This document shows positions 453 through 58,318 of a stretch of DNA of 64,000 nucleotides, one piece after another. The stretch's first letter is position 1. Each line of letters opens with the position of its first letter. Below the pieces are notes generated by a model, which was not told the origin of the DNA, did no database searches, and saw nothing but the letters and a program-made list of their open reading frames with translations. This stretch comes from Nipponacmea schrenckii (taxonomy: Eukaryota > Mollusca > Gastropoda > Lottiidae). Where the stretch lies: assembly GCA_030562195.1 (NCBI GenBank), contig JAUJPP010000003.1:34540602-34604601 (forward strand). Reading direction: 5' to 3'. A program made the position numbers and the translations under genes.

Positions 453-3400
453 TAATGAGGGCTATATTTTCGATACTCTTAATCTTAATGTAGCGGAGGC
501 AGATTTAGACAAGAAATTCTATTTACCACGTTCGACATACATTGGAGATCCTGATAGTCCTTTAACATTGAGAGAAATAATCCAACGATTAGAGGTAAGT
601 TATATAGAAGGATATAGATCACAGTCAATTTAAAAGATACTGCATTAATTTGGACCTGTCAAAATTGGACCTACCCAGTTCCTCAGATGTGATATCGGCA
701 TTGTTGTTCTTTTTTAATAACAATTCATTCTGTCCCTATTTTAATTGCTAGTTTTTAAGAATTCTCATCAATCATAGTAAGAGCGTTATTACGAAAAACC
801 TTTACCAAGATGATCATAGGATATAAATCATTTATTTCATCAAAATTTGCTTCAAACTGCATGACATAAAAACTCTTATTTTATTTTATTCAAAATAATG
901 ATAAATGCAATATTTTATATTTCAGTATTCATATTGTAGCAGTATTGGTGTAGAATATATGTTTATTAATAATAAAAGAGAAAGAGATTGGATCAGAACC
1001 AAATTTGAAACTAGACCAGAAGTTGAAGAACCAGATAAAGTCACAATATTAGAACGCTTGATTAGATCAACTAGGTAAGTACATTTATTAAAAGGTTTGA
1101 TTAGATCAACCAAATAAGTAAAATTAGTTGGTTTGTTTACATCAACCAAATAAGTAACATTAGTTGGTTTGTTTATATCAACTAAATAAGTAACATTGGT
1201 TGGGTTGTTTACATCAACCAAATAAGTAACATTAGTTGGTTTGTTTACATCCAACAAATTAGCAACCAATAAGTAATATTAGTTGGTTTGTTTACATCAA
1301 CCAAATAAGTAACCAATAAGTTATATTAGTTGTTTTGTTTACATCAACCAAATAAATAACATAAGTTGTTTGTTTACATCAAACAAATAAGTAACATTAG
1401 TTGGTTTGTTTACATCGACCAAATAAGTAACATTAGTTGGTTTGTTGACATCAACCAAATAAGTAACATAAGTTGTTTGTTTACATTAACCAAATAAGTA
1501 ACATTAGTTGGTTTGTTTACATCAACCAAATAAGTATTATTAGTTGGTTTGTTTACATCAACCAAATAAGTAACATTAGTTGCTTTGTTAACATCAACTA
1601 AATAAGTAACATTAGTTGGTTTGTTTATATCAACCAAATAAGCAACCAATAAGTAATATTAGTTGGTTTGTTTACATCAACCAAATAAGTAATATTAGTT
1701 GGTTTGTTTACATCAACAAAATAAGCAACCCATAAGTAATATTAGTTGGTTTGTTAACCTCAACCAAATAAGTACTGTAACATTAGTTGATTGTTCAGAT
1801 CAACCACATAGTAAAATTAGTTTGTTTGTTTTCATCAACCAAATAAGTAACATTAGTTGGTTTGTTTACATCAACCAAATAAGCAACCCATGATTAATAT
1901 TAGTTGGTTTGTTTACATTAACCAAACAAGTCATCGTAGATGGTTTGTTTACATCACCCAAATAAGAAACATTAGTTGGTTTGTTGACATCAACCCAATA
2001 AGTAACATTATTTGGTTTGTTTACATCAACCAAATAAGCAACCCATAATTAATATTAGTTGGTTTGTTTACATCAACCGGAGCCGTTGGTGGCTCAGTGG
2101 GTTAGACGCTTGCTCGCTTACCTGAAGGTCCAGGGTTCAATGCCTGCAAAGCTTGAGATGAACTTTCGGATTTTTTAGCTCGGTTTCCCCTTGTCAGTGA
2201 TGCCGGTCGGAGGGACTGACATGGAAAAAGTGTCTAGTCGTTCGGATGGGACAATAAACCGAGGCCCCGTGTGCTACAGGCTGTGCACGTTAAAGATCCC
2301 TCCACAGTCGGAAATCGCAAAAAGAGTAGGCTAATGCCGCTGTCCTGGCAAAATTTCCCTCATTGCACACTGCATGGCGTTGCCCGTCTTCATTAGCCCA
2401 TAAGGTGCAGAAGAGTAGGACGTAAAACTGCATTCATTTCATTTTTCATTTGTTTACATCAACCAAATAAGTACCGTAACATTAGTTGATTGTTCAGATC
2501 AACCACATAGTAAAATTAGTTTGTTTGTTTTCATCAACCAAATAAGTAACATTAGTTGGTTTGTTTACATCAACCAAATAAGCAACCCATAATTAATATT
2601 AGTTGGTTTGTTTACATCAACCAAATAAGTAATCGTAGATGGTTTGTTTACATCAACCAAATAAGGAACATTAGTTGGTTTGTTGACATCAACCCAATAA
2701 GTAACACTAGTGGGTTTGTTTACATCAACCAAATAAGCAACCCATAATTAATATTAGTTGGTTTGTTTACATCAACCAAATAAGTAATGAGGGATGGTTT
2801 GTTGACATCAACCAAATAAGTAACATTAGTTGGTTTGTTTAGATCAACCAAAAAAGTAACATTTGTTGGTTTGTTTAGATCAACCAAATAAGTAACATTA
2901 GTTGGTTGGTTTAGATCAACCAAAAAAGTAACATTTGTTGGTTTGTTTAGATCAACCAAATAAGTAACATTAGTTGGTTGGTTTAGATCAACCAAATAAG
3001 TAACATTGGTTGGGTTGTTTACATCAACCAAATAAGTAACATTAGTTGGTTTGTTTAGATCAACCAAATAACTAACATTAGTTGGTTTGTTTAGATCAAC
3101 CAAATAACTAACATTAGTTGGTTTGTTTAGATCAACCAAATAACTAACATTATAAGACTATTTGATCAAAGCAAAACCCACAGGCTCTCACTGTCTACTT
3201 TGAAAAAAATACTTAAGCTTCCTGAATTTGATTTGTTTTTTTAGATTTGAATCTTTCCTGGCTAAAAAATGGGCGTCTGAAAAGAGGTTTGGTTTAGAAG
3301 GATGTGAAGTATTGATACCAGCTTTAAAAACTATTATAGATGAATGTTGTGAGAATGGTGTGAATTATTTTGCTATTGGAATGCCCCACAGGTTTGTATA

Positions 3401-6400
3401 TATTTGTAAGCACGGTGTACTCAGCGTAATCTGACATACTACAGGACTGCAATATTATATCAGATTAGTGTTTGAATATTCTGATTTATGAGGTTTTTTT
3501 TATCATCTACCACATGATATTATTAGTTTGGTGACCTAGCTAAGATACCACAGTACCTTCTCTACTGATGTGTGGTTGTATATTATAGTGGTCCCTGTGG
3601 GTCCTACAGTTTGTAGTCTGTTTACATTTACCTCATGCACACTTTAAAGGCTACAGTTCTCTATGTATACTTTTGAGTATATGTTTTAATATCATTATGA
3701 AGATGTGCAACATTTGGTGATGTTCTGATAATTGAAAAATCTGAAAACAAAATAATCAAATTTTGGTATCTGTTTGAAAAAGGAGTAGGAAATGATTATC
3801 TTTAGTTTCCAAAAAAAATTTTATCACTAGGATCAAAATTGGCTGAGTTATGCCTTTATGGTCCTATAGTGGCTTATTGCCAAAAATTTTTATATTTGTT
3901 AAAAGCAAAATTTACTTTGTCAAGGTTTTCTCTTGTCACACAAGAACAAGTAATAAAATTTTTCATTTTTGTGAAGTGCCACACAAGCTTTCAGCTGAAA
4001 CTAAGATCTATTGCAAGCAATCATCTGATCTAGTTTTATTTCTCCATATATATAACTATCTGGGCTGATACTGTATCGTTATGATTAACTTGTATTGTGT
4101 TTATTTTTGGCAATGTGCATCATGAGCTTTAAATTGTGTAATAGATTATATGTTGGTTTGTTAATTTCAGAGGAAGATTAAATGTTTTAGCCAATGTTTG
4201 TCGTAAACCACTACACAAGGTACTTAGTCAGTTTAATCCTGATCTGGAACCTTCTGATGAAGGATCTGGGGATGTCAAGTATCATCTTGGTTTGTGTCAT
4301 GAAACGATTAAACCGTAAAACCAATAAGAAGATCAGACTGGCTGTTGTAGCTAATCCATCTCATTTAGAGGCTGTGAATACTGTGGTTATGGGAAAAGTA
4401 AGATCTGAACAACAAAAACGTGGTGATAAGGAGGGCGATTCTGTAAGTTGTAGGATCATTCTTTTTGCACTATCTTGTTCATTATTGCGGATGATTATCG
4501 GAAACAATATTGAAAGAGTTTTTGTCACTTTCCGAAATCATCTTGTGTTACCCAGTTTATTACTCATGATCTTTGATTTAAAAATTGAAAGTTAACAGAT
4601 CATATCAAATCAGATCGGGTTACCCGTGAAATGAAATGGTACCTGTAGCCAGTTCACTGATTGATCATTTCAAAACTAATGGGATGTGATTATAATGCTA
4701 TTATTGCAAATATATATTCTTATATACATGCATTTTTTACGCTAACATGAATATGTGGATGTATATTGTCATCACCCCTGTCCGTCTGTCAGTCATTATT
4801 TGATGCAGACACATTAGAAGCTACGATTTTTAATGAAACTTTTTCATGAAATTTGGTGTGAGCATTGGAATTGATAAGACGGTAGTCAAGTTCATAGATA
4901 CAATAGATAGCTGGTATATTAAAAATCAGACCAAGCGAAAATTGTATGGATTTTGATGAAACTTGGTGTGAGTGTTCTTAAACACCCAAGGATTAACTTT
5001 AAATAAAAATCAGAAAAGCCTTTTGTTTTCCAGTAACTCTTGTCAACCTCCTGGACAAATTGAAAAGCTCTGTAGGGTACTAGTTTATTTATATTATCTT
5101 TGTAGGCCATGTGTTTGTTATTACATGGAGACGCTGCCTTTGCTGGACAAGGAGTTGTATATGAGGGTATGCATCTTGGAGAGTTGCCAGCCTATACAGT
5201 TCATGGTACAATACATATTGTTGTTAATAATCAGGTTAGTTTGATTCCAATCTAATTGAAACTGACTCATCTTGAATGAAATTGTATGTACATGTAGTTC
5301 ACAGCTATTTTAATCACTACCTCTACTTAATAAGTTTTATTTTCAAAAAGGCTATTACCGGTAATCACATTTTAAACCATAACTAAACCTTTACATGTAA
5401 TTTGAAGGCTTAGGTGAAACCTGTATCAAATTTTACTTAATAAATCTACATGTAGGTAAATATTCAAAATGACTGTGTTATATATGTAAGAACCATATAT
5501 AGTTTCTTATGGTATTTCATTGTGCTTTTTAGGAGCTTTGATATTTTTAATATATAATTCATCAAACAATTGATTCCTTCATTTCCTCCATTTTGTTATC
5601 ATCTCCACCATGTTATATTTGTAATTTGGGGGTTTAGTTGTAGGGAGATAATGAGCACATGTATAAGTCAGCCATCTTAGATTCCATCTCTAGTGTCCCA
5701 TAGTTCCTTGGGAACAGGATGCTTTTATTTACATCATGTCATAATACATATAATGGAAGATAACTACAGTTTACATGTAGTGAGAACATAATGATTGAAC
5801 ATATATGACAATTTGGATAAAAATATTGTGTTGTATCTCCCTTAATAACAGATGACACAAAGGATGAACCCTAATATGAATAAGGCATGGCCTTGAATGA
5901 GAGCGCAGACTAGGGCTATTGATAATAATGACAATGAATACGCAAAATAATGTCATTCATTGATAAATTTCGACGTCATAAATAGCATGTGACGTCAGAA
6001 AACGCCCTGTCAACATAATTTCGACGGCAAGACAACTCTTATATGAGATAAACTTGTTTATGGAAATCCTGCATAGAACATTCAGGAAAAATTAAGATTA
6101 AACGTAAGGTGTTTAAATAGGGTACAAAACATCTATTTTAGTGTTTGTGAAAGAAATGTAATTTATTTTAAGAATTCCAGAATATTTACTTCGAGACTAC
6201 CTTGATTGACTGCGACCTAGCTGTAAACAAACATGGCAGCCCCCATGGCGGCCATCTTTTTTTTTTTTTTTTTTTACTACCAGTGGTGCAAAGTTCTTCT
6301 GATGCATATTCATGTATACATGTTACCATAAGAGAGAGCTTCGCTCTCGACGGCTTCGCCGTCAAGAGAGCTGCGCTCTCATATTAAATATCAGATAAAT

Positions 6401-9400
6401 TTAATGTTTAATGAGTTATAACCTTTGTTCTTGAAGACAATTTAAATTTAAATTTTTTGAGCACATTTTTTGATGGATTTTGATGATTATTTTTTGTTAT
6501 CACTCAAGGATAAACTTTATTGGTAATCAGATAAATCCAAAATATTTAATATAATTGAGACAGTGAGTATATATAAGCGTGCCTTTCAAGCCATCTTTTG
6601 CCTATGTCATATTATTGAATTCAAGGTGTATTTTGCAGAAATTTAATACTATATAGGCCTACTACTTTTTTTTTCTTAACTTTTCCAATATAAATTGCTA
6701 TTTAATTTTACAATAATGAGTATCATAAAATGAGTATTGTTTATTATATCAGATCCAAACATTAATGTTGCATCACTAACTAACAACTTATGGACATTTT
6801 TTTACTGCTACATTGTTCATTTGTTTTCATTTCAGATTGGATTTACCACAGATCCTAGATTCTCTCGATCTTCACCTTATTGTACTGATGTAGCTAAGGT
6901 TGTCAACTGTCCTATTTTTCATGTTAATGGTGACGATCCAGAAGCTGTTATGTATGTATGTCAAGTAGCATCAGATTGGAGAAAAGAATTTAAAAAAGAT
7001 GTTGTTATTGATTTGGTAAGTGCCTTTTAAGCAATTTCAGTTTATGTCCATAAGTAATTGAGTAAAAAAGTAAGAATGACAGCATCATGGTTATGTAAAT
7101 TACTTTTCAATGCAAAATATTTTATACTCAACCTACTTCTTCTCTTTCGAATGCTTTGGATTGTGTTTGTACAAAATTTGAACATAGAAGATACAAATCC
7201 TTGAACATTAAAAATACAAAATTTGAAAAAAAAAAGAAAATATAAAACCTTGAAAACATAGAAAAATAAACATGATAAACTAAGGATGTAAATTATTGTT
7301 AAAAAAGAAAATTGAAATTTGAAAAACATGTGATAAATTTAACTTTAATCTTTATTATTTTTTTCTTTAAGCCATAAGGTTTGATAATTTTACTAGGGCT
7401 GAGTATTGTGTCTAAAAATCATATTGCGATACAATTCTCTTCTGAAAAATCAAATTATCAATAAAAGTATTTGTATTGTTTGTCAATTTCATTAAAATTA
7501 GGACATTTGGAAGAGTTCAGTAGTAGAAGTGTTTCAATATTTGAATTCTAACAATAATGTAATGTTTATCAAATAATGAATTATCCCCGGTATTTTGTTG
7601 ATGATATAGATCAGCTATAGAAGATATGGTCATAATGAAGTAGATAATCCCAGGTTTACTCAACCTATTATGTACAAGAAAATTGATAAATTATGTACTG
7701 TTGAAACTAAGTATGCTGAAAAACTCATCAATGAAAAGATTATGACTCAACAGAAATTTGAGGTGAGCTAAATATTTCTCTTGTTCAATGAGTACCAGTT
7801 ATTTTTGTATGTCCTAAAAAATGCAGTTCTGTTTATTCTATATCAGCTTCATACCAATGTATCCTAAAAACAAAGTTTTGGACTATGGCATAGGTCATGA
7901 TAAATTTGGATTTTTGTCAGATATGCAGGTCAAAGGAACCGATATAGAGAAGTTGACTACTTGTTCCAAAGGGAGAAACAACTAAGCTCTAGGCTGTGCA
8001 GGGTTGAAATACAAATGGGCAAAATTGACCTCATGGCACAATGCATTTTCTGTTTGATTTAGACCAATTCATCGGATTAGTAAGAGTCAACCAATTATTT
8101 CATTTTGAATTGCAAGTGTAAATTTGAATTGAGATTGAGCAGGAAGTTAAATGATCTTGTCAAAACCCCACATGAAAATGGGCAATTGCCTCACCCCTGC
8201 CTTCCGTTGTCCTTCCCCCGTTTTTTGGTCCTCAAAAATTCTTTGAGGAACAGGCCAATTTCTTGACTGAAGAAATTTTTGTTATTATCTTGATAATTTG
8301 GGCAATTGAAAATGGCATATTCCAAAGTCTTTTGTTGGCCCTTGTTTGGGTTAAATTTACTTGTGTACCAATAAAGCAAGTTTCATCCGATTTGAATGAA
8401 ACTTGGTGTGTTTTTATCTTGATAATATCTCGCTAGATGTCTGTTAACGAGTTATGGCCCTTGATTAAATGAATAAACGTTAAAATTTACTTGTGTACGC
8501 AATAGAAGCTGTAGTTTTTATCCGATTTGAATGAAACCTGGTATGTGTATTCATCTTGATAATATCTCGCCAGATGTCTGTTTATGAGTTATTGCACTTG
8601 ATTGAATGAAAAAAGGTTAAAATTTTCTTTTGTACGCAATGGAAGCTATAGTTTTTATCCGATTTGAATGAAACTTGGTATGTGTATTCATATTAATAAC
8701 ATCTCGGACAAGTTAAAAAATGGTGCGATTCCAGATGTTGGTTTATGAGTTATTGCCCTTGATTAAATGAAAAAACATGGAATATTCTGTTTGCTAAAGT
8801 GGGCATATGTTACCTTGCCTGGCAAGCTATCTTTCTATTTAGGACACAATCCATGAATATGAGCAAATTCTAGAAGATGGCTTGAAACTTTCAAAAGATG
8901 AAGGTGCCCCAAGTCCTGAAGAATGGCTTGATTCACCATGGACTGACTTTTACTCTCAGAATAGAGATGCTTTACACTATGCTAGTACAGGAATAACTGA
9001 AGATAGAGTAAAACATATCTTAACACACGTTAGTGATATACCAGATAGAACTGATCACAGTAATTCCAATGAGAAAAAGAAAGTCAATATACATTCTGGT
9101 AAGTTCTAGTACATAAGGTGTTGCTTATTTTGCTGTAATGTGATATGTATAGCACTAACTATAGCTAAAATACAATATGATATTTATTAAGATACAATAT
9201 GTATCATAATTTGGGGTAATAGATACAAAAGATACATGTAGCTTTCCAAGAAAGATTGACATACTCCCATACGGCAGATTTGATAAATTTTTAGAGCAAC
9301 GTGAATCATAATGATGAATCTGTCAAGTTTTCTATTTAATAGTCAAAAAATGTTATTTGCTCAAGATATGTTATCAATTTCATACACACAAAGTTTCACC

Positions 9401-12400
9401 AATTTTTAATTATTTTAAGTCAAGGGCGATAAGTCATCATATATTATTCACTTACTGTCTGTTTATATCACAAAGTTCTTAATTGTTGTATGTTTGGTGA
9501 CAATGATAAAATTGTATGAATATACAAGTCATCTACCAGGTCATTCAAATATTTAACAAATCTGTTCAATCAATAATTTATCAACTAGCCTTGTTACTCT
9601 GTTATAGAGTCTCCGTGCTCTGTGATGTTGATGTACTTGATTTTAATTTCAGGTATCGCCAGAGTATTAAATAATCGTCGAAAACTAATGGAAGAAAGAA
9701 TGGTAGACTGGGCTGGCGGTGAATTTTTAGCTTTTGGTTCGTTATTAATGGATGGATATCATTGTAGACTTAGTGGACAAGATGTAGAAAGAGGCACTTT
9801 TAGGTTATTTGGTTTATATGTTTCTTATGACTTGTCAATGTACTACATCATTCTGAAATATTTAGGATAACTATGGGTTTTATACCATCAATCATATTTG
9901 AGGTCATGCTATGCACATCACTGTGGATTGTTGTTTGTAGGTGATTAAAGACATTTCCACTAGAACTAGTCAGATCAAAACTTCTAATAACCTTAAGCGG
10001 AGTTTGTCTATTTGAAACAAAATGATTATATAATTTTCATTTTCTTTTCAGTCACCGTCATTTTGTATTACATGATCAGATTGAAGATAAAACTTTTGGT
10101 GTACCTCTAACAACATTATCACCAGACCAGGCTAAATTCACTGTTTGTAATAGTCCTCTATCAGAGTATGGTGTATTAGGTAAGATAAATATACTGTTTG
10201 TAATAGTCCTCTATCAGAGTATGGTGTATTAGGTAAGATAAATATACTGTGTTTTAACAGTCCTCTATCAGAGTATGGTGTATTAGGTAAGATAAATATA
10301 CTGTTTGTAACAGTCCTCTATCAGAGTATGGTGTATTAGGTAAGATAAATATACTGTGTTTAACAGTCCTCTATCAGAGTATGGTGTATTAGGTAAGATA
10401 AATATACTGTTTGTAACAGTCCTCTACCAGAGTATGGTGTATTAGGTAAGATAAATATACTGTTTGTAACAGTCCTCTATCAGAGTATGGTTTATTAGGT
10501 AAGATAAATATACTGTGTGTAACAGTCCTCTATCAGAGTATGGTGTATTAGGTAAGATAAATATACTGTTTGTAACAGCCCTCTATCAGAGTATGGTGTA
10601 TTAGGTAAGATAAATATACTGTTTGTAATAGTCCTCTATCAGAGTATGATGTATTAGGTAAGATAAATATACTGTTTGTAATAGTCCCCTATCAGAGTAT
10701 GGTGTATTAGGTAAGATAAATATACTGTGTGTAACAGCCCTCTATCAGAGTATGGTGTATTAGGTAAGATAAATATACTGTGTTTAACAGTCCTCTATCA
10801 GAGTATGGTGTATTAGGTAAGATAAATATACTGTGTGTAACAGTCCTCTATCAGAGTATGGTGTATTAGGTAAGATAAATATACTGTTTGTAATAGTCCT
10901 CTATCAGAGTATGGTGTATTAGGTAAGATAAATATACTGTCTGTAACAGTCTTCTATCAGTGTATGGTGTATTAGGTAAAATAAATATACTCTGTGTAAC
11001 AGTCATCAATCAAAGTATGGTGTATTAGGTAAGATAAATATACTGTGTGTAATAGTCCTTTTATCAGAGTATGGTGTATTAGGTAAGATAAATATACTGT
11101 GTGTAACAGTTTCCCCTATCAAAGTATGGTGTATTAGGTAAGATAAATATACTGTGTGTAAAAGTCCTTTTATCAGAGTATGGTGTATTAGGTAAGATAA
11201 ATATACTGTTTGTAACAGTCCTCAATCAAAGTATGGTGTATTAGGTAAGATAAATATACTGTGTTTTAACAGTCCTCTATCAGAGTATGGTGTATTAGGT
11301 AAGATAAATATACTGTGTGTAACAGCCCTCTATCAGAGTATGGTGTATTAGGTAAGATAAATATACTGTCTGTAACAGTCTTCTATCAGTGTATGGTGTA
11401 TTAGGTAAAATAAATATACTCTGTGTAACAGTCATCAATCAAAGTATGGTGTATTAGGTAAGATAAATATACTGTGTTTTAACAGTCCTTCTATCAGAGT
11501 ATGGTGTATTAGGTAAGATAAATATACTGTGTGTAATATTCTTCTATCAAAGTATGGTGTATTAGGTAAGATAAATATACTGTGTGTAAAAGTCTTCTAT
11601 CAGAGTATGGTGTATTAGGTAAGATAAATATACTGTTTGTAACAGTCCTCAATCAAAGTATGGTGTATTAGGTAAGATAAATATACTGTGTGTAACAGTC
11701 CTCTATTAGAGTATGGTGTATTAGGTAAGATACATATACTGTGTGTAACAGCCCTCTATCAGAGTATTGTGTATTAGGTAAGATAAATATACTGTGTGTA
11801 ACAGTCTTCTATCAGAGTATGGTGTATTAGGTAAGATAAATATACTGTGTGTAACAGTCCTCAATCAAAGTATGGTGTATTAGGTAAGATAAATATACTG
11901 TGTGTAACAGTCTTCTATCAGAGTATGGTGTATTAGGTAAGATAAATATACTGTGTGTAACAGTCTTCTATCAGTGTATGGTGTATTAGGTAAGATAAAT
12001 ATACTGTGTGTAACAGTCCTTCAATCAAAGTATGGTGTATTAGGTAAGATAAATATACTGTGTGTAACAGTCCTCTACCAGAGTATGGTGTATTAGGTAA
12101 GATAAATATACTGTGTGTAACAGTCTTCTACCAGAGTATGGTGTATTAGGTAAGATAAATATACTGTTTGTAACAGTCCTCTATCAGAGTATGGTGTATA
12201 AGGTAAGATAAATATACTGTTTGTAACAGTCCTCTATCAGAGTATGGTGTATTAGGTAAGATAAATATACTGTGTGTCATAGTCCTCTATCAGAGTATGG
12301 TGTATTAGGAAATGATAAATATACTGTTTGTAATAGTCCTCTATCAGAGTATGGTGTATTAGGTAAAATAAATATACTGTGTGTAACAGTCCTCTATCAG

Positions 12401-15400
12401 AGTATGGTGTATTAGGTAAGATAAATATACTGTGTGTAACAGTCCTCTATCAGAGTATGGTGTATTAGGTACATGAAGATAAATATATTGTGTGTAACAG
12501 TCCTCTACCAGAGTATGGTGTATAAGGTCCTCTATCAGAGTATGGTGTATTAGGTAAGATAAATATACTGTGTGTAACAGCCCTCTATCAGAGTATGGTG
12601 TATTAGGTAAGATAAATATACTGTGTGTAACAGTCCTCTACCAGAGTATGGTGTATTAGGTAAGATAAATATACTGTGTGTAACAGTCTTCTACCAGAGT
12701 ATGGTGTATTAGGTAAGATAAATATACTGTTTGTAACAGTCCTCTATCAGAGTATGGTGTATAAGGTAAGATAAATATACTGTTTGTAACAGTCCTCTAT
12801 CAGAGTATGGTGTATTAGGTAAGATAAATATACTGTGTGTCATAGTCCTCTATCAGAGTATGGTGTATTAGGTAAGATAAATATACTGTTTGTAATAGTC
12901 CTCTATCAGAGTATGGTGTATTAGGTAAAATAAATATACTGTGTGTAACAGTCCTCTATCAGAGTATGGTGTATTAGGTAAGATAAATATATTGTGTGTA
13001 ACAGTCCTCTACCAGAGTATGGTGTATAAGGTAAGATAAATATACTGTGTGTAATAGTCCTCTATCAGAGTATGGTGTATTAGGTAAGATAAATATATTG
13101 TGTGTAACAGTCCTCTACCAGAGTATGGTGTATAAGGTAAGATAAATATACTGTTTGTAATAGTCCTCTATCAGAGTATGGTGTATTAGGTTAGATAAAT
13201 ATACTGTGTGTAACAGCCCTCTATCAGAGTATGGTGTATTAGGTAAGATAAATATACTGTTTGTAATAGTCCTCTATCAGAGTATGGTGTATTAGGTAAG
13301 ATAAATATACTGTGTGTAACAGTCCGTAAGATAAATATACTGTGTGTAACAGTCCTCTACCAGAGTATGGTGTATTAGGGAAGATAAATATACTGTGTGT
13401 AACAGTCCTCTACCAGAGTATGGTGTATTAGAAAAAATTAATTTAAAATAAAATTGATAGACATTGTAACTTTATATTTGAATAACTTTTAATATTTTTA
13501 GTTGTCTGGATTTCATATTGATACATGTATATAAATTTCAGGATTTGAAACTGGTTATTGTACAAATGATCCAAATTTTCTAACAATATGGGAGGCTCAG
13601 TTTGGAGATTTTGCTAATGGGGCTCAAACTATGATAGACCAGTTTATATCTAGTGGACAGGATAAATGGACTCGACAGAATGGTGTTGTTTTGTTACTAC
13701 CACATGGCTATGATGGCATGGTAAGATGTTTTGTAAAAGTGAAGACACACTTCTATTTCTGGAAAGTTTCTGCGACCCAACTGAACTGTGCATTTCATCA
13801 TTCCATTTGATAACTATGTAAAATTGTTTACTAGCCCACTATGCTCTGCAGGTAGATTTTCCATTACACTCAAGCAGACAAGACTTGATTACCCTCTTTC
13901 TAAATTTCAAAAACAACTGTCCTGTTAGTGTCTTTATGTCTGAAACAGCAATCAACCATATTAAGATCTTCAGCTTCAAGTTGATATTTTTTGGGGGAAT
14001 AAGATTATTTCATGGCTTACTAAGGGAAATTCTTAAGCCTTGCAATGGAATGAATACAAAATAAAAAAAATTTCAGGGCCCAGAACACTCCAGTGCCAGA
14101 TTAGAAAGATTTTTACAGCTGTGTAACGATGATGAAGAAGAGTTCCCTGTAAGTTTGCAAATAGTTATTTCCAGTACCCATTTACTGACATTACTAACAT
14201 ATACAGCTTAGCAGTTGTAGTTTTTAGTAGGAAAGCTGCAACGATTCTTAAAGGGATAATAGGCGTTAGAATACACTCGTCCTACGGCTTATATTTGTGT
14301 TTCATATTGACTATTAGTTAAATAAGTATGCAACGCACACTTTACCAAATTTTAAAAAGCCACAATAAAAATATATTCGGAATTTTAAAAAAAAGTGAGC
14401 CAGCGACGATTCCATTCAGTTTGAGAATAAAAGCGTCTGGTAAATCAACGCTAAAACATCATTGTGGAATTCATCAGTAGGGGTCAAGGACGCGTGAAAA
14501 CCCACATGTTAGAGTTACTTCCCTTTTTATTTACACGATTTAAAAATCGCTTGATGGATGACTCAAGCGTTTTATGATTAACTACTTTATTTTGGGGATT
14601 TATCGGATTTTAGAGGGATTTTGATGTATAGGTAAGTCCACTGATGGGTATATACAGTTATTGTCTAAATTTGAGTGAACTTAAAATTTTATGTTCTTTC
14701 TAACGCCTATTATCCCTTTAAGAGATTTGATTTATTACATCAATAAATAATAATAGTGAATAGTGAGATTTTCACCTTATATGACTAATTTGTTATTGGT
14801 ATTATGTACCCTAGCTGAACAAGCCAGTTCCATTTCAGGATACTGAAGACAAAGATTATGTGATAAAACAGTTAAAAGAAATAAACTGGTTTGTGTGTAA
14901 TTTTACCACTTCTGCTAATTTATTTCATGGTTTGAGACGACAAATTTTATTACCTTTCCGAAAACCTGTAAGTAAAAAAAAATACCAAATAAACTCCATC
15001 ATTTGTATAAGCCTAAAACTTACGAATGCTGTACAGAAAAGTGTAAATATGATGCCCTGTTGTGTTGATTAATCTAATGCTTATCCCGGCAAATGATTAT
15101 ACATGACATAATGTGTAAATTGGATAAGAAAAATATAATTTTTGGTTTCAGTATTTTTTTTTTCTTTAAATTATAAAAATATTAATATTTTGTTTGAAGT
15201 AAAATATTTTTCTCAAGGTGAAATCAAAATTGTTGCTAAATTCTTGTTGCTATACTGAACCAAAAATTATGCTTTTTATACGCCCACATGGAAATGTGGA
15301 CGTATATTGCCGTCGCCCCTGTCCGTCCGTCCGTCGGTCCGTTCGTCGGTCCGTTCGTCTGTCCGTCCACATTTGTTGTATCCACGATAGAGGCTACAGT

Positions 15401-33600: not shown

Positions 33601-36600
33601 TAATTGTTCTTATTTATCTATACATTTATTGTTTTGAATACTTATTAAACAACATAAAATAAAAGTCAACAATTCAAGTTAAGGCTTGTATTTGACCTGA
33701 ATATGCGCATCTTGGCTCAATAGCCTCTCAGCTTTTTTATTCCCACCTGAAAAATGTAAACTAAGATTTTCCTATGTGGAACCTCTACAAGTGGAAGTTA
33801 ATGTAAAATAAAGTTCACTCTTACAGTGATGTCTGTCCATGTTAAACGGTGAATATTTTTAGGTCAAGAGTTATTTACAAATAACAAATATTGGTTGTCA
33901 ATATTATTGTTATTTTTAAGCCACTTCATATAGGTCACTGCATCTACCTAGTGGAAGTGTTTTTCCATTTTGTTTATATGCCAATAATGCCAAACTTGTT
34001 CTTAGTGAGTTTCTTGAAAAAAGAAATTGGGTCATATGCAGATTGTTAAAAACAGATCATAATATATGAATTTTAGTGTTAAATATATTATGTTGATCTC
34101 TTTAGCCGCGTTTAGACAGCCATGAAATCTGGCCTACTTGAAGTGAGCCGTGCTCGGCCCGCTTGGTCGGTACCGTTTACACAGCACTGTTTTCACTAGG
34201 CCAGAATCTAAAAATAGACATGCTCTCTAGTCAAAGGAGGTGAAAAGAACACTAAAAGACAAAATGGCGCCTAACATAAACAAATTCTTGATTTTTAAGT
34301 TTTTGTTAATTTTGTTTCGTTCAAAGCGAAAACGAAATTTAAGAATCGTCAATTTTGAGACACACAGCGATTGTCTCATAAATTTTGTGGTTGTGGCGAG
34401 CACCTTCCAGTTGAACTTGTATGGTCTCGTCACCCCAAATAGCGATCAAAGCTTCGGTTTCTTCATCAGTCCAAGTAGCTCCGCGTTGGGCACACATTTT
34501 AACGCAGATGTTTGATGTAAATAATAATATTAGCCTAGCTTGTCGTTCCCGCGGAATAAGTTAAAAGGTCAAGGCCATTATAGCGCAAGCGCAAAAGGTC
34601 TCAGCAAAGTGGGCCAAGTGCACTCGGCCCAGTGGCGTGTTTACAAAGCACTAATATTTTGCCGTGCCGTGCTCGGTCTGGACCGAGACCACCTCTTCTT
34701 GGGGGGCTCGGCCCACTTGAAACTAGCACGGTGCCGAGCCCCCTCAACCCGGACTCGGCCCGGATTACTTTTGGCTGTCTAAACGTGGCTTTTGAGTGCA
34801 TAAGTTGATTTTTGAGAAGTTATCTTGATCTGTGATGAAATTTAGAGAGCACTATGTTGGTCTTCTAGAGAACACTATGTTGGTCTTGTAGAGAGTTCTA
34901 TGTTGGCCTAAGAGAGCACTATGTTGGTCTTATATTTATTCTTATAGAGAGCATTATGTTGGTCTTATAGATAACAGTATGTAGGTATTATATTTATTCT
35001 TATAGAGAGCACTATGTTGGTCTTATATTTATTCTTATAGAGAGCACTATGTTGGCCTTATATTTATTCTTATAGAGAGCACTATGTTGGTCTTATAGAG
35101 AGCACTATGTTGGTCTTATATTTATTCTTATAGAGAGCACTATGTTGGCCTTATATTTATTCTTATAGAGAGCACTATGTTGGCCTTATATTTATTCTTA
35201 TAGAGAGCATCATATTTATTCTTATAGAGAGCACTATGTTGGCCTTATAGAGAGCACTATGTTGGCCTTATATTTATTCTTATAGAGAGCACTATGTTGG
35301 TCTTATAGATAACAGTATGTTGGCCTTATATTTATTCTTATAGAGAGCACTATGTTGGCCTTATATTTATTCTTATAGAGTGCACCATGTTGGTCTTATA
35401 TTTATTCTTATAGAGAGCACTATGTTGGCCTTATATTTATTCTAATAGAGAGCACTATGTTGGTCTTATATTTATTCTTATAGAGAGCACTATGATGGCC
35501 TTATATTTATTCTTATAGAGAGTACTATGTTGGTCTTATATTTATTCTTATAGAGAGCACTATGTTGGTCTTATATTTATTCTTATAGAAAGCACTGTGA
35601 CGGTCTTAAAGAGAGCACTATGATAGTCTTATATTTATTCTTATAGAGAGCACTATGTCCGTCTTATAGAGATCACTATGTTGGTCTTATAGAGAGCAAT
35701 ATGATGGTCTTATAGAGAGCATTATGTTGGTCTTATAGAGAGCACTATGATGGTCTTATAGAGAGCATTATGTTGGTCTTATAGAGAACAGTATGTTGGC
35801 CTTATAAAGAGCACTTTGTTGGTCTCATAGAGAGCACTATGTTGGTCTTATAAAGAGCACTATGTTGGTCTTATAGAGATCACTTTGTTGGTTTTATAGA
35901 GTTCACCATGTTGGTCTTGTAGAGAGCACTATGTATAGAGAGCACTATGTTGGTCTTGTAGAGAACACTATGTTGGTCTTATAGAGAGCATTATGTTGGT
36001 CTTATAGAGAACAGTATGTTGGCCTTATAAAGAGCACTGTGTTGGTCTCATAGAGAGCACTATGTTGGTCTTATAAAGAGCACTATGTTGGTCTTATAGA
36101 GAGCACTATGTTGGTCTTATAGAGAGCACTATGTTGGTCTTATAGAGAGCACTATGTTGGTCTTATAGAGAGCACTATGTTGGTCTTATAGAGAGCACTA
36201 TGATGGTCATATAGAGAACAGTATGTTGGTCTTATAGAGAGCAGTATGTTGGTCTTATAGGAGAGCACTATGTTGGTCTTATAGAGAGCACTATGTTGGT
36301 CTTATAGAGAACACTATGTTGGTCTTCTAAGGAGCACTATGTTGGTCTTATAAAGAGCCCTATGTTGGTCTTATAGAGAGCACTATGTTGGTCTTATAGA
36401 GAGCACCTATGATGGTCTATAAAGATAGCACTATGATGGTCTTATATTTATTCTTATAGAGAGCACTATGTTGGTCTTATAAAGAGCACTATGTTGGTCT
36501 TATAAAGAGCCCTATGTTGGTCTTATAGAGAGCACTATGATGGTCCTATAGAGAGTTGTATGTTGGTCTTTTAGAAGAGCACTATGTTGAGTCTTTAGAA

Positions 36601-39600
36601 GTATATGTTGATGTTTTAGAAAGTATTATGTTGATGTTTTAGAAAGTATTATGTTGATGTTTTAGAAAGTATTATGTTGATGTTTTAGAAAGTATTATGT
36701 TGATGTTTTAGACAGTATTATGTTGATGTTTAGACAGTATTGATAAATCAACATATTGTTTCTGATAAGCAATTAGATTATTTGATAATTATATTGATTC
36801 ACAATGGTTTTAATTAGTCGGGATGAGAAGAAGCCATGAGAGTTAGTGATGAGGTAAAAGATAAAAGTATCTTATCGTTCAGATTATGTGTAAATAAACA
36901 GAGACCCTTTGGTTATAGACTGTGCATGTTAAAGATCATTAAACAATGTATTTGAATTTTCTAATGGACTAATAATGCCATTAGATAATGAAATAAGACC
37001 TCTATTATAGATATACTACTTGTCTTCTGTATGTGAACTGAAATGTTTCTAAACTTAAAGAGAAGTAGTATATCCATAATAGTGGTCTTATTTATCTATC
37101 TAATGTTCTATCTACTTCTAAATATCATTAAGATGACTAATATCATTGTCTATTACACTCCATTTCATTTCACTATTTTGGGCTTCCTATCCTTAAAACA
37201 AACGCCACATTAAATATATTTTCAACAAATTTCTTGCCAATCAGGGTACCACTGAGGTGTATGCTGTACCATTTAGGATCACTAGTACCTAAGTTATTGA
37301 AATATAAAATTTTATGACTTTGGACCTATTTTGTCAGAAATGCAAGAAATTTATTTCCCTAAATAGAAAGTAAATGAAATAGACAATATTTGTGAATATA
37401 GCAGCACAAGATGATTTGGAAAAGCTGTTTCTAAATATTGTGTTCATGTTCATTGTATATAATTATATTGTAAAGTTTATAAATGTTGAAATAGTATATT
37501 ATCTAAAACCTCTTTTTTTCTGTGGAAAGCAAACTGTTTCCTCGTCCATTCGCTTGTTTTATTGGCTAGTTTATGTATTTTATCTGTTTTAAATGTTTAA
37601 AGTTCAAATTCTGTTTTATAACCTTTTGTTTGTCGACTGATTTGGATGGAGTTTATGTTGGTAGACTGATGTGAATTGCACAAAAAGTGTTTACATGAAG
37701 TATTCAGAAAATCTATGTGATGGTTTGAATGATATCAAACATTAAAGGATAAAATCCCTTGACAGAGAAAAATATATGTCAGAAATGAAACATATTGATA
37801 TTTGCTGTAAAACATATCTTTAGCTTGAACATGTCTAACGACAAATGGTCCAGAAAACCACCCGTACCAATAACATATTTGATATATTTCTTAATATAAT
37901 ATTTTCAGGAGCAGCCATATTGAATTTAGCAGAAGTACAAAAAGAGATACATGCCAAATTTGAAGAATGTGTAAGTAGACTAGTTAAGCTTTGGTATTTT
38001 ATAGCATCAAGTCTTGGTTACCAACCTATTGAACTATTGCTCAGTCTAAGCTTCACAATTTCTGTTAGTACCTTTAGGCTACATCTCACCTACCGGAAGA
38101 ACCAAGAGTTACTTGTAGGGTTTACAGTTAACAGTTCACAATGTTTGCAAGGGTCAAATAATAAGTCTGAAACAATGAAATATTGGTACATGGGACAAAA
38201 ATGATAGTCAAGTAATCAAAGTTTTACAAACTTTCTTGGGATACTAGGATCCTGTTTTGTGAAACATGGAATATATGATTGTTTGAGACTTACTGACTTA
38301 CTCTTAAGAAAATCTTTTTTAAAAATAAGTTTTTAGCAGCAGGGCGCTCCAATAGCCTTATATTTCATGTGTGCCAGAAGCACTGAAACCAAGGGGGAAG
38401 TGTGCAATACAAATAGCATCATGTCCCTTTAAATTAGAATTGCTATCTAATAGATAAGGTATTGTTGTGTACATGTAGATAACTATCACACCTGATATTG
38501 ACATCATTAAAAGTTGATGAGGGCTTTGTACAGTTATTAAATATTTCTGGTTGCCATGGAAATGTGAAAGTCAATATGTAATGTAGTAGATCTATATTTA
38601 TGTATTGAATTTCATAATCATCCTGAATTTAATGGCATCAAAACAAAAACAAAACATTATTGACATAGAATAACTGCTCTAATCTGGTTTTGGTTCCATT
38701 GGTAACAATCCTAGAGACATTATAGAACATCTGACATCATTCAAGTTTCAGCTTTGTATAGATACCAAGTTTACTTTTTAAACAAGGTGCAGATTTGCAA
38801 AATCTAACACCTCAATGACTTATGCATAAAGACACAATAGAGTCTAATATTAAATCTAATAATGTATTAACTCAATCACAGTCTAGGCCTACTATGAATT
38901 TATTTATTTGATTTGGCACCAAGTCCCTGTTACTTTGGGTTTTACCTCTCTACAACTTTATAATAATATTTATCCCTTCTAAGTAACATTATATTTTTAA
39001 TAATGTAATCAGGATCCTGTTTTACGAAAACTTAACTTAGGATATGATTTTAGTGTTTCAATAATCAGATTGGCCAATCACTAAAATTGAGTTTTTATTA
39101 ACCAATCAGGTTACTGTATTTCTTAAAATCTTGACTGTATCTTTGTTAAAATTTTGTGAAACAGGTCCCAGGATCACAGCCATCACCTGGTGGATTTCCA
39201 CAAACATTCTGACCAATTATTGCTTGAAACTTTATGTGTCAATCCAATTAAATCGATACTGCATCTTAGAATAGACATAAATTGATTTTCTTAAGAATTA
39301 TCAATATGAGTATATATTCATCAGTGAACTTACCTGGTGTTATAAAGTAACAGAATCCCTGTAAATTCTGGAAAATTCACAAAACATAGTAAATTATTGT
39401 AAACCTCTTAATCAATTTCATTAAGTGTTTTTCAATCATCAGTTTCATTTTTGATTATATAAGGATTCAGTTATGTTATTTACGGCAGCAGTTTTATCTA
39501 CTGATATGTGGATATTTATTTATTATGAACTGCGTTTTGAAACACATCCAGGTAACATTATCAAGTAAAAACTGATTGACAATGTTTAAAATTTCCTGGT

Positions 39601-55240: not shown

Positions 55241-58318
<3,078 letters not shown>

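What the first reader, a model, noticed from the sequence alone, without database searches (positions are those of the whole stretch)
10052..13431. A minisatellite that multiplies an exon end and its 5' splice site about 60-fold
The 53-bp unit equals the last ~40 coding bases of an OGDH exon plus the first 13 intron bases, so each copy presents a near-perfect GTAAGAT donor in its native exonic context. Reading past the genuine donor gives [18 protein letters not shown] and then TAG immediately before the second donor, so use of a later site truncates the protein. The spliceosome must pick the first of ~60 near-identical donors, or most transcripts are lost. The array could act as a U1 snRNP sponge, a splicing timer, or simply a tolerated burden.
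Basis: partly seen in the sequence, partly recalled or inferred. Interest (0 to 1): 0.88.

Follow-up and report, generated by a model that had tools for sequence, protein, structure and literature searches.

The report
Splice-site minisatellite in a limpet gene
In a limpet's 2-oxoglutarate dehydrogenase gene, the end of one exon together with its splice site has been copied about sixty times into the intron; this is real and striking, matches a kind of repeat known from a few human genes, and looks tolerated rather than functional.

Summary
A 53-bp unit (last 40 nt of an OGDH exon plus first 13 nt of its intron) fills 10133-13431; of 61 donor positions, genuine one included, 52 keep a full-strength donor. 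Use of any later donor meets TAG in the first unit. The gene is limpet OGDH (80% identity to Lottia), conserved apart from one apparent frameshift in exon 4. The kind is known: human CBS carries a 31-bp VNTR, by its notation 24 exon + 7 intron nt, and IFI6 a donor-carrying minisatellite. Two additions. The same gene holds a second array founded on another exon end, with its donors dead. And in the same genome three further arrays are founded on coding exon ends (SDR, macrodomain, POLR3B; 3 of 14 donor-motif arrays examined) and two on exon starts (2 of 11 acceptor-motif arrays). So founding across splice junctions recurs, on both sides. Best reading: junction-blind tandem duplication, tolerated because exon definition picks the exon-proximal site. 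A U1 sponge or timer has no support: donor bases vary as often as the rest (p=0.49). No RNA was available; copy number is unverified.

The parts
494..20554 (+). OGDH (2-oxoglutarate dehydrogenase E1) gene; exons numbered 1-16 as found in the window (the 5' part of the gene lies outside)
   Evidence: (human OGDH 7wgr_A); exon 16 and stop codon read
10052..10179 (+). exon 10, 128 nt, ends ...SEYGVL G (phase 1)
10133..10179 (+). exonic founder copy of the repeat (first, coding, unit)
   Evidence: aligned columns; coding sequence conserved in molluscs
10180..10185 (+). genuine 5' splice site TAG|GTAAGA, U1 duplex -9.4 kcal/mol, 5th strongest of 15 donors of the gene
10180..13431 (+). intronic 53-bp minisatellite; 51 further full-strength donors among 60 copies
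13432..13541 (+). the remaining 110 nt of intron 10
13542..13720 (+). exon 11 (starts with GA of Gly, then FETGY)
926..1074 (+). exon 2, source of the second array; donor TAG|GTAAGT at 1075
1094..3152 (+). second exon-founded minisatellite (36-bp unit); its first copy matches exon 2 end + intron start at 26 of 30 positions; no GTAAG in this stretch
2080..2448 (.). SINE-like insertion that splits the second array (named from inspection; limits approximate)
   Evidence: no Rfam family at gathering threshold in the window
4171..4442 (+). exon 4: homology passes from one reading frame to another near 4300-4315 (apparent frameshift)

Best explanation
A 53-bp segment that straddled the exon 10/intron 10 junction was tandemly duplicated and then grew, by the usual minisatellite turnover, to about 60 copies inside the intron. 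The outermost, exon-side copy stays the used donor because the exon is recognised as a unit (acceptor at 10052 paired with the nearest donor at 10180) and because that donor is made first. Later copies are tolerated intronic DNA with no selected role. Shown: anatomy, direction of copying (the exon copy is coding and conserved), donor intactness, recurrence in other genes. Inferred: which donor is used, the tolerance mechanism and the duplication mechanism.
For: Unit 1 is conserved coding sequence, so the exon is the source. Unit 2 equals the exon copy over the shared columns except 2 bases. Donor columns vary no less than others. Predicted accessibility does not set the first donor apart (0.077 against a median of 0.073 for the others), and its sequence context is identical to that of donor 2 from -40 to +18, so position is the main cue left. 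A second array in the same gene has the same origin with dead donors. Arrays founded on exon ends recur in SDR, macrodomain and POLR3B genes and on exon starts in PDE and RAP1GDS1 genes, the array lying on the intron side. In a database of alternative sites in large introns, sites closest across the exon are preferred (PMC9225289, abstract); the upstream donor stays tied to Pol II through U1 (PMC8316553, abstract).
Against: No RNA data. In short introns the intron-proximal site is preferred, and intron 10 without the array has only 110 nt, so early stages should have been mis-spliced; yet the OGDH paralog carries a doublet with two live donors in a 148-nt intron. Intron 9 upstream is 248 nt, borderline for exon definition as known in other animals (threshold recalled). 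Classical tests of duplicated donors (recalled, Reed and Maniatis) favour the intron-proximal one. That surveyed arrays lie on the intron side is partly built in, since I looked for an exon only at the outer edge of each array.
Confidence: 0.72

Rival explanations
1. Regulatory poison array: a share of transcripts uses later donors, gains the stop in the first unit and is degraded, so array length tunes OGDH output.
For: Every later donor gives the same early TAG; 51 extra donors at full strength. Human IFI6 uses two downstream repeat units as donors (PMC4526556, passage).
Against: No RNA; donor positions show no constraint; the POLR3B and SDR arrays have no stop in their first copies, so there is no common logic of decay.
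Confidence: 0.12
2. Two-step removal: any block of whole units begins with GT and ends with AG, so a transcript that first used a late donor could be spliced again from donor 1 to the AG that ends the retained block, restoring the normal mRNA.
For: Units end TATTAG and start GTAAG, so after late-donor use this AG would directly precede exon 11. Unit-end AG sites (52) score a median of -0.7, inside the range of genuine acceptors of the gene (-2.3 to 13.5).
Against: The genuine median is 4.2, so these are weak acceptors (matrix from only 15 sites); no good polypyrimidine tract; no RNA.
Confidence: 0.06
3. U1 snRNP sponge or splicing timer.
For: 52 strong U1 sites at one exon end and intron.
Against: No sign of donor constraint; dead-donor sister array; arrays of the same style founded on acceptors; U1 is very abundant relative to one transcript (general knowledge).
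Confidence: 0.02
4. Assembly error: the true locus has one or a few copies.
For: The assembly has oddities: contig C3 looks doubled and exon 4 carries an apparent frameshift.
Against: 33 variant types, a scattered order of variants and block duplications are typical of a real minisatellite; similar arrays occur elsewhere in the genome.
Confidence: 0.06

Closest known systems
Human CBS 31-bp VNTR, c.1444_1467+7(16_21) (PMC2630376 passages; Lievers 2001 cited there, not read)
   Same: By its notation the unit is an exon end plus intron start (24 + 7 nt) repeated in tandem; units carry substitutions.
   Different: 16-21 copies against about 60; 31 bp against 53; polymorphism known there, untested here.
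Human IFI6 (6-16) minisatellite with multiple splice donors (Turri 1995, title seen in reference lists, paper not held; PMC4526556 passage)
   Same: A minisatellite provides several splice donors.
   Different: There two downstream units are used and give three mRNAs; here usage is unknown and later use would truncate. Its unit length (12 bp) and place at the exon 2 end are recalled.
[quoted passage not shown] the paper writes 'donor sites')
   Same: Junction-spanning duplication made harmless because splicing removes one copy.
   Different: Single duplication on the exon-start side, no array; comparable to the acceptor-founded arrays seen here.
Intron gain by tandem duplication of AGGT segments, including the 24-bp multi-copy case in fission yeasts (PMC4974935 passages)
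   Same: Tandem AG|GT units whose blocks are bounded by GT and AG.
   Different: Here the junction belongs to an existing intron and no new intron is made.

Membership tests
Junction-spanning donor VNTR (CBS 31-bp, IFI6) | Repeat unit contains exon end and intron start | tested here: met
   donors 1 and 2 identical from -40 to +18
Junction-spanning donor VNTR (CBS 31-bp, IFI6) | Most units carry a good 5' splice site by sequence | tested here: met
   52 of 61 full strength by sequence and U1 pairing
Junction-spanning donor VNTR (CBS 31-bp, IFI6) | Copy number varies between individuals | not testable with these tools
   one assembly only
Junction-spanning donor VNTR (CBS 31-bp, IFI6) | More than one donor used in mRNA (IFI6) | not testable with these tools
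   no RNA
[quoted passage not shown]
   the paralog has an intron at the same place without the array, and the human protein aligns across the junction without insertion
Functional OGDH gene | Exons conserved over the whole protein | tested here: met
   80% identity to Lottia gigantea P0121, 100% of the query covered; the query was assembled from exons with X at the frameshift and lacks the N-terminal part outside the window
Functional OGDH gene | Uninterrupted reading frame | tested here: inconclusive
   apparent one-frame shift in exon 4; no reads to tell error from allele

The most novel reading that the evidence does not exclude
Array growth is its own cure. The first duplication in a 110-nt intron puts two equal donors under intron definition, where the wrong (intron-proximal) one should win; only when the donor copy dies (second array) or the array grows long enough for exon definition (this array) is the gene spliced normally. 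Junction-founded minisatellites would then be a recurrent way in which short introns become long and switch their mode of recognition. Fits so far: both array introns are left with only about 110 nt when the arrays (and the SINE-like insert) are taken away. The OGDH paralog's doublet with live donors in a 148-nt intron is the test case: it should be mis-spliced.
Probability: 0.2. Interest if true: 0.75.

Novelty: new member of a known kind. Interest (0 to 1): 0.55.

Why it matters
It is a natural tie-break experiment: about 50 donors of equal strength and near-identical context compete in one intron of a core metabolic gene, so position should decide. The genome offers a small panel to test exon against intron definition: live donors with a stop (OGDH exon 10), dead donors (OGDH exon 2), units in frame in their first copies (POLR3B, SDR), a doublet in a short intron (OGDH paralog), and arrays founded on exon starts (PDE, RAP1GDS1).

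Tried and rejected
Hot spot for donors: rejected as unproven. An acceptor-word search of the same form found junction-founded arrays too (2 of 11 confirmed), and a CAGGTAAG word has a high prior chance of being a true donor (inference), which I could not measure because the count of the single word did not complete. The raw genome counts (AGGTAAG x3: 894+1643 against 908+872 for the reversed word; CAGGTAAG x3: 110+411 against 152+31; TTTTCAG x3: 399+915 against 207+319) count overlapping matches, are dominated in the listed part by a few long arrays and probably count contig C3 twice, so I draw no enrichment from them.

Independent second copy of the locus: rejected, contig looks doubled. Structural masking of later donors: no difference. 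A 15-nt in-frame microexon inside units (CTATCAG|AG): acceptor scores are poor (median -7.1, 37 sites). A planned exon survey by Pfam family PF00063 did not complete. Variation within the unit is concentrated in the middle 23 columns (21 of 33 types, p=0.022, region chosen after seeing the data): unexplained. Papers looked into without use: PMC7277093 (no occurrence), PMC11718197 (passages), PMC4039745 (passages), PMC2572611 and PMC2915984 (passages: they only cite Turri).
Full report
What is there. The window lies in a 399-Mb assembly. Its gene at 494-20554 encodes the E1 subunit of 2-oxoglutarate dehydrogenase: human OGDH matches exon by exon (the frame gave nothing), and the best relative of the assembled protein is a Lottia gigantea protein at 80% identity over the whole query, followed by a second Lottia paralog (70%); Patella caerulea has 65%. 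So the source is most likely a patellogastropod limpet (inference). None of the six mollusc relatives aligned has an insertion at the exon 10/11 junction.

The array. From 10133 to 13431 a 53-bp unit repeats; 63 units are aligned, including the exonic first copy and two partial copies. Each unit is the last 40 nt of exon 10 plus the first 13 nt of intron 10. Of 61 donor positions, 52 are full strength (48 TAG|GTAAGA with the genuine one, 4 AAG|GTAAGA), 4 are TAG|GTAAAA and 5 are damaged. Pairing to U1 is -9.4 kcal/mol, fifth of the gene's 15 donors. Reading past donor 1 reaches TAG directly before donor 2.

Direction and age. The first copy is coding and conserved, so the exon is the source. 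Unit 2 differs from the exon copy at two bases; the intronic units differ from it by 0-6 substitutions over the 40 columns compared. Blocks inside the array are duplicated exactly over 281 and 151 nt, as in ordinary minisatellites. Donor columns hold 7 of 33 variant types, 5.6 expected (p=0.49): no trace of selection for or against the donors.

A sister array. Intron 2 of the same gene holds a 36-bp array (1094-3152, split by a SINE-like insert). Its first copy matches the end of exon 2 and its donor at 26 of 30 positions, score 35 against a maximum of 27 in 200 letter shuffles. The donor is lost in that copy (CAAATAAGT for TAGGTAAGT), and the stretch holds no GTAAG; the best of 189 GT sites scores -5.3 against -10.0 for the genuine donor. 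Intron 10 without its array has 110 nt; intron 2 without array and insert about 111 nt (arithmetic).

The paralog. A second OGDH gene at C1:8.62-8.64 Mb has no array at the exon 10 junction, but the end of its exon 13 with the donor is tandemly doubled in a 22-bp unit (2.2 perfect copies), in an intron of about 148 nt (next exon start taken from the tblastn match).

Recurrence. Triplets of donor words were searched in the whole genome; only the first places are listed. I fetched 14 listed arrays (L044-L057; L046 and L047 are one family) on C1, C2 and the first 29.2 Mb of C3 and looked for an exon at the first donor. Three of 14 are founded on coding exon ends confirmed by a family match: an SDR gene (45-bp unit, 7 donors; the two exons cover adh_short positions 1-37 and 38-108), a macrodomain gene (Pfam Macro E 5.6e-06; units diverged, 52 and 43 nt between the first donors) and RNA polymerase III subunit 2 (42-bp unit, 36 donors; RPC2 E 3.3e-19). 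One more (L057, 46 bp, 78 donors) is exon-like but without a family match. L053 looks like a coding repeat of the other strand (inspection). The other nine show no evident exon at the first donor by inspection; two of them (L048, L050) have open frames of 52 and 37 codons there that I did not search, and L045 and L049 have exon-like stretches 100-200 nt upstream that the unit does not include. The telomere-like cluster at C1:279.7 kb was not examined. As a comparison, triplets of an acceptor word gave 11 distinct loci in the listed part. Two are founded on confirmed exon starts, a phosphodiesterase (Pfam E 1.6e-05, 25.2 bits, cut-off 24.8) and RAP1GDS1 (E 8.5e-10; no Pfam match), and one is probable (cadherin-like, E 0.0021, below the curated cut-off). 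Eight show no evident exon in about 600 nt downstream by inspection. So both kinds of junction found arrays. In each confirmed case the array lies on the intron side of the coding copy; since I looked for the exon only at the outer edge of the array, this is partly built in.

Mechanism. Donors 1 and 2 share 58 bases of context and predicted accessibility does not separate donor 1 from the rest. What remains is position: donor 1 is nearest to the exon's acceptor and is made first. In large introns sites closest across the exon are preferred, in short introns those closest across the intron (PMC9225289, abstract only). The upstream donor stays bound to Pol II through U1 (PMC8316553, abstract only). 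I therefore take the array as tolerated under exon definition (0.72). This rests on inference, as no RNA was available. The two-step removal and the 'growth is the cure' ideas are speculation with stated tests.

Known or new. CBS carries c.1444_1467+7(16_21), a 31-bp VNTR that by its notation holds 24 exon and 7 intron nt (PMC2630376 passages), and IFI6 uses repeat units as donors (PMC4526556 passage; Turri 1995 itself is not held). The array is thus a new and larger member of a known kind. My literature searches (capped listings of titles and abstract starts) showed no report of this locus or of such a series in a mollusc, but the library lacks most subscription papers.

Limits. One assembly; contig C3 appears to be one sequence held twice; exon 4 has an apparent frameshift, which may be an error or an allele; copy number is unverified; exon calls at surveyed arrays rest on short matches; the survey covers only the first listed places of each search.

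Noticed in passing
1094-3152: Second minisatellite of the same gene, founded on the end of exon 2 but with the donor dead in the first copy and no GTAAG in the later ones; split by a SINE-like insert at about 2080-2448.
   Followed up: yes
G000 contig C3: Contig length 59,252,672 is exactly twice the offset (29,626,336) between two identical copies of the locus; 0 of 20,000 compared bases differ. The contig appears to hold one sequence twice.
   Followed up: partly
4300-4315: Homology in OGDH exon 4 moves from one reading frame to another; sequencing error, allele or damage cannot be told apart here.
   Followed up: partly
L012:5344-5391: OGDH paralog: 22-bp perfect tandem duplication of an exon end with its donor, in an intron of about 148 nt; looks like an early stage of the same process.
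   Followed up: partly
L056 (C3:28476600-28483000): POLR3B array: the 42-bp unit is 14 codons; read-through stays open for 106 codons, so use of one of the first later donors there would add 14-residue repeats in frame.
   Followed up: partly
9804: Donor of exon 9 is weak (TAG|GTTATT, -4.0 kcal/mol to U1), the weakest of 15 in the gene.
   Followed up: no
16098-17165: Minus-strand ORF of 355 codons with a GIY-YIG domain in intron 13; resembles the end of a Penelope-like element (name recalled).
   Followed up: partly
34841-36741: Large 23-bp minisatellite (TCTTATAGAGAGCACTATGTTGG), not tied to an exon that I could see; exons there were not searched.
   Followed up: no
55241-56891: Tubulin gene on the minus strand (Pfam Tubulin and Tubulin_C).
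   Followed up: no
L053 (C3:7973000-7978900): 27-bp array whose other strand reads as a coding repeat (ETRENKDLP, by inspection); its donor-like words are probably incidental.
   Followed up: no
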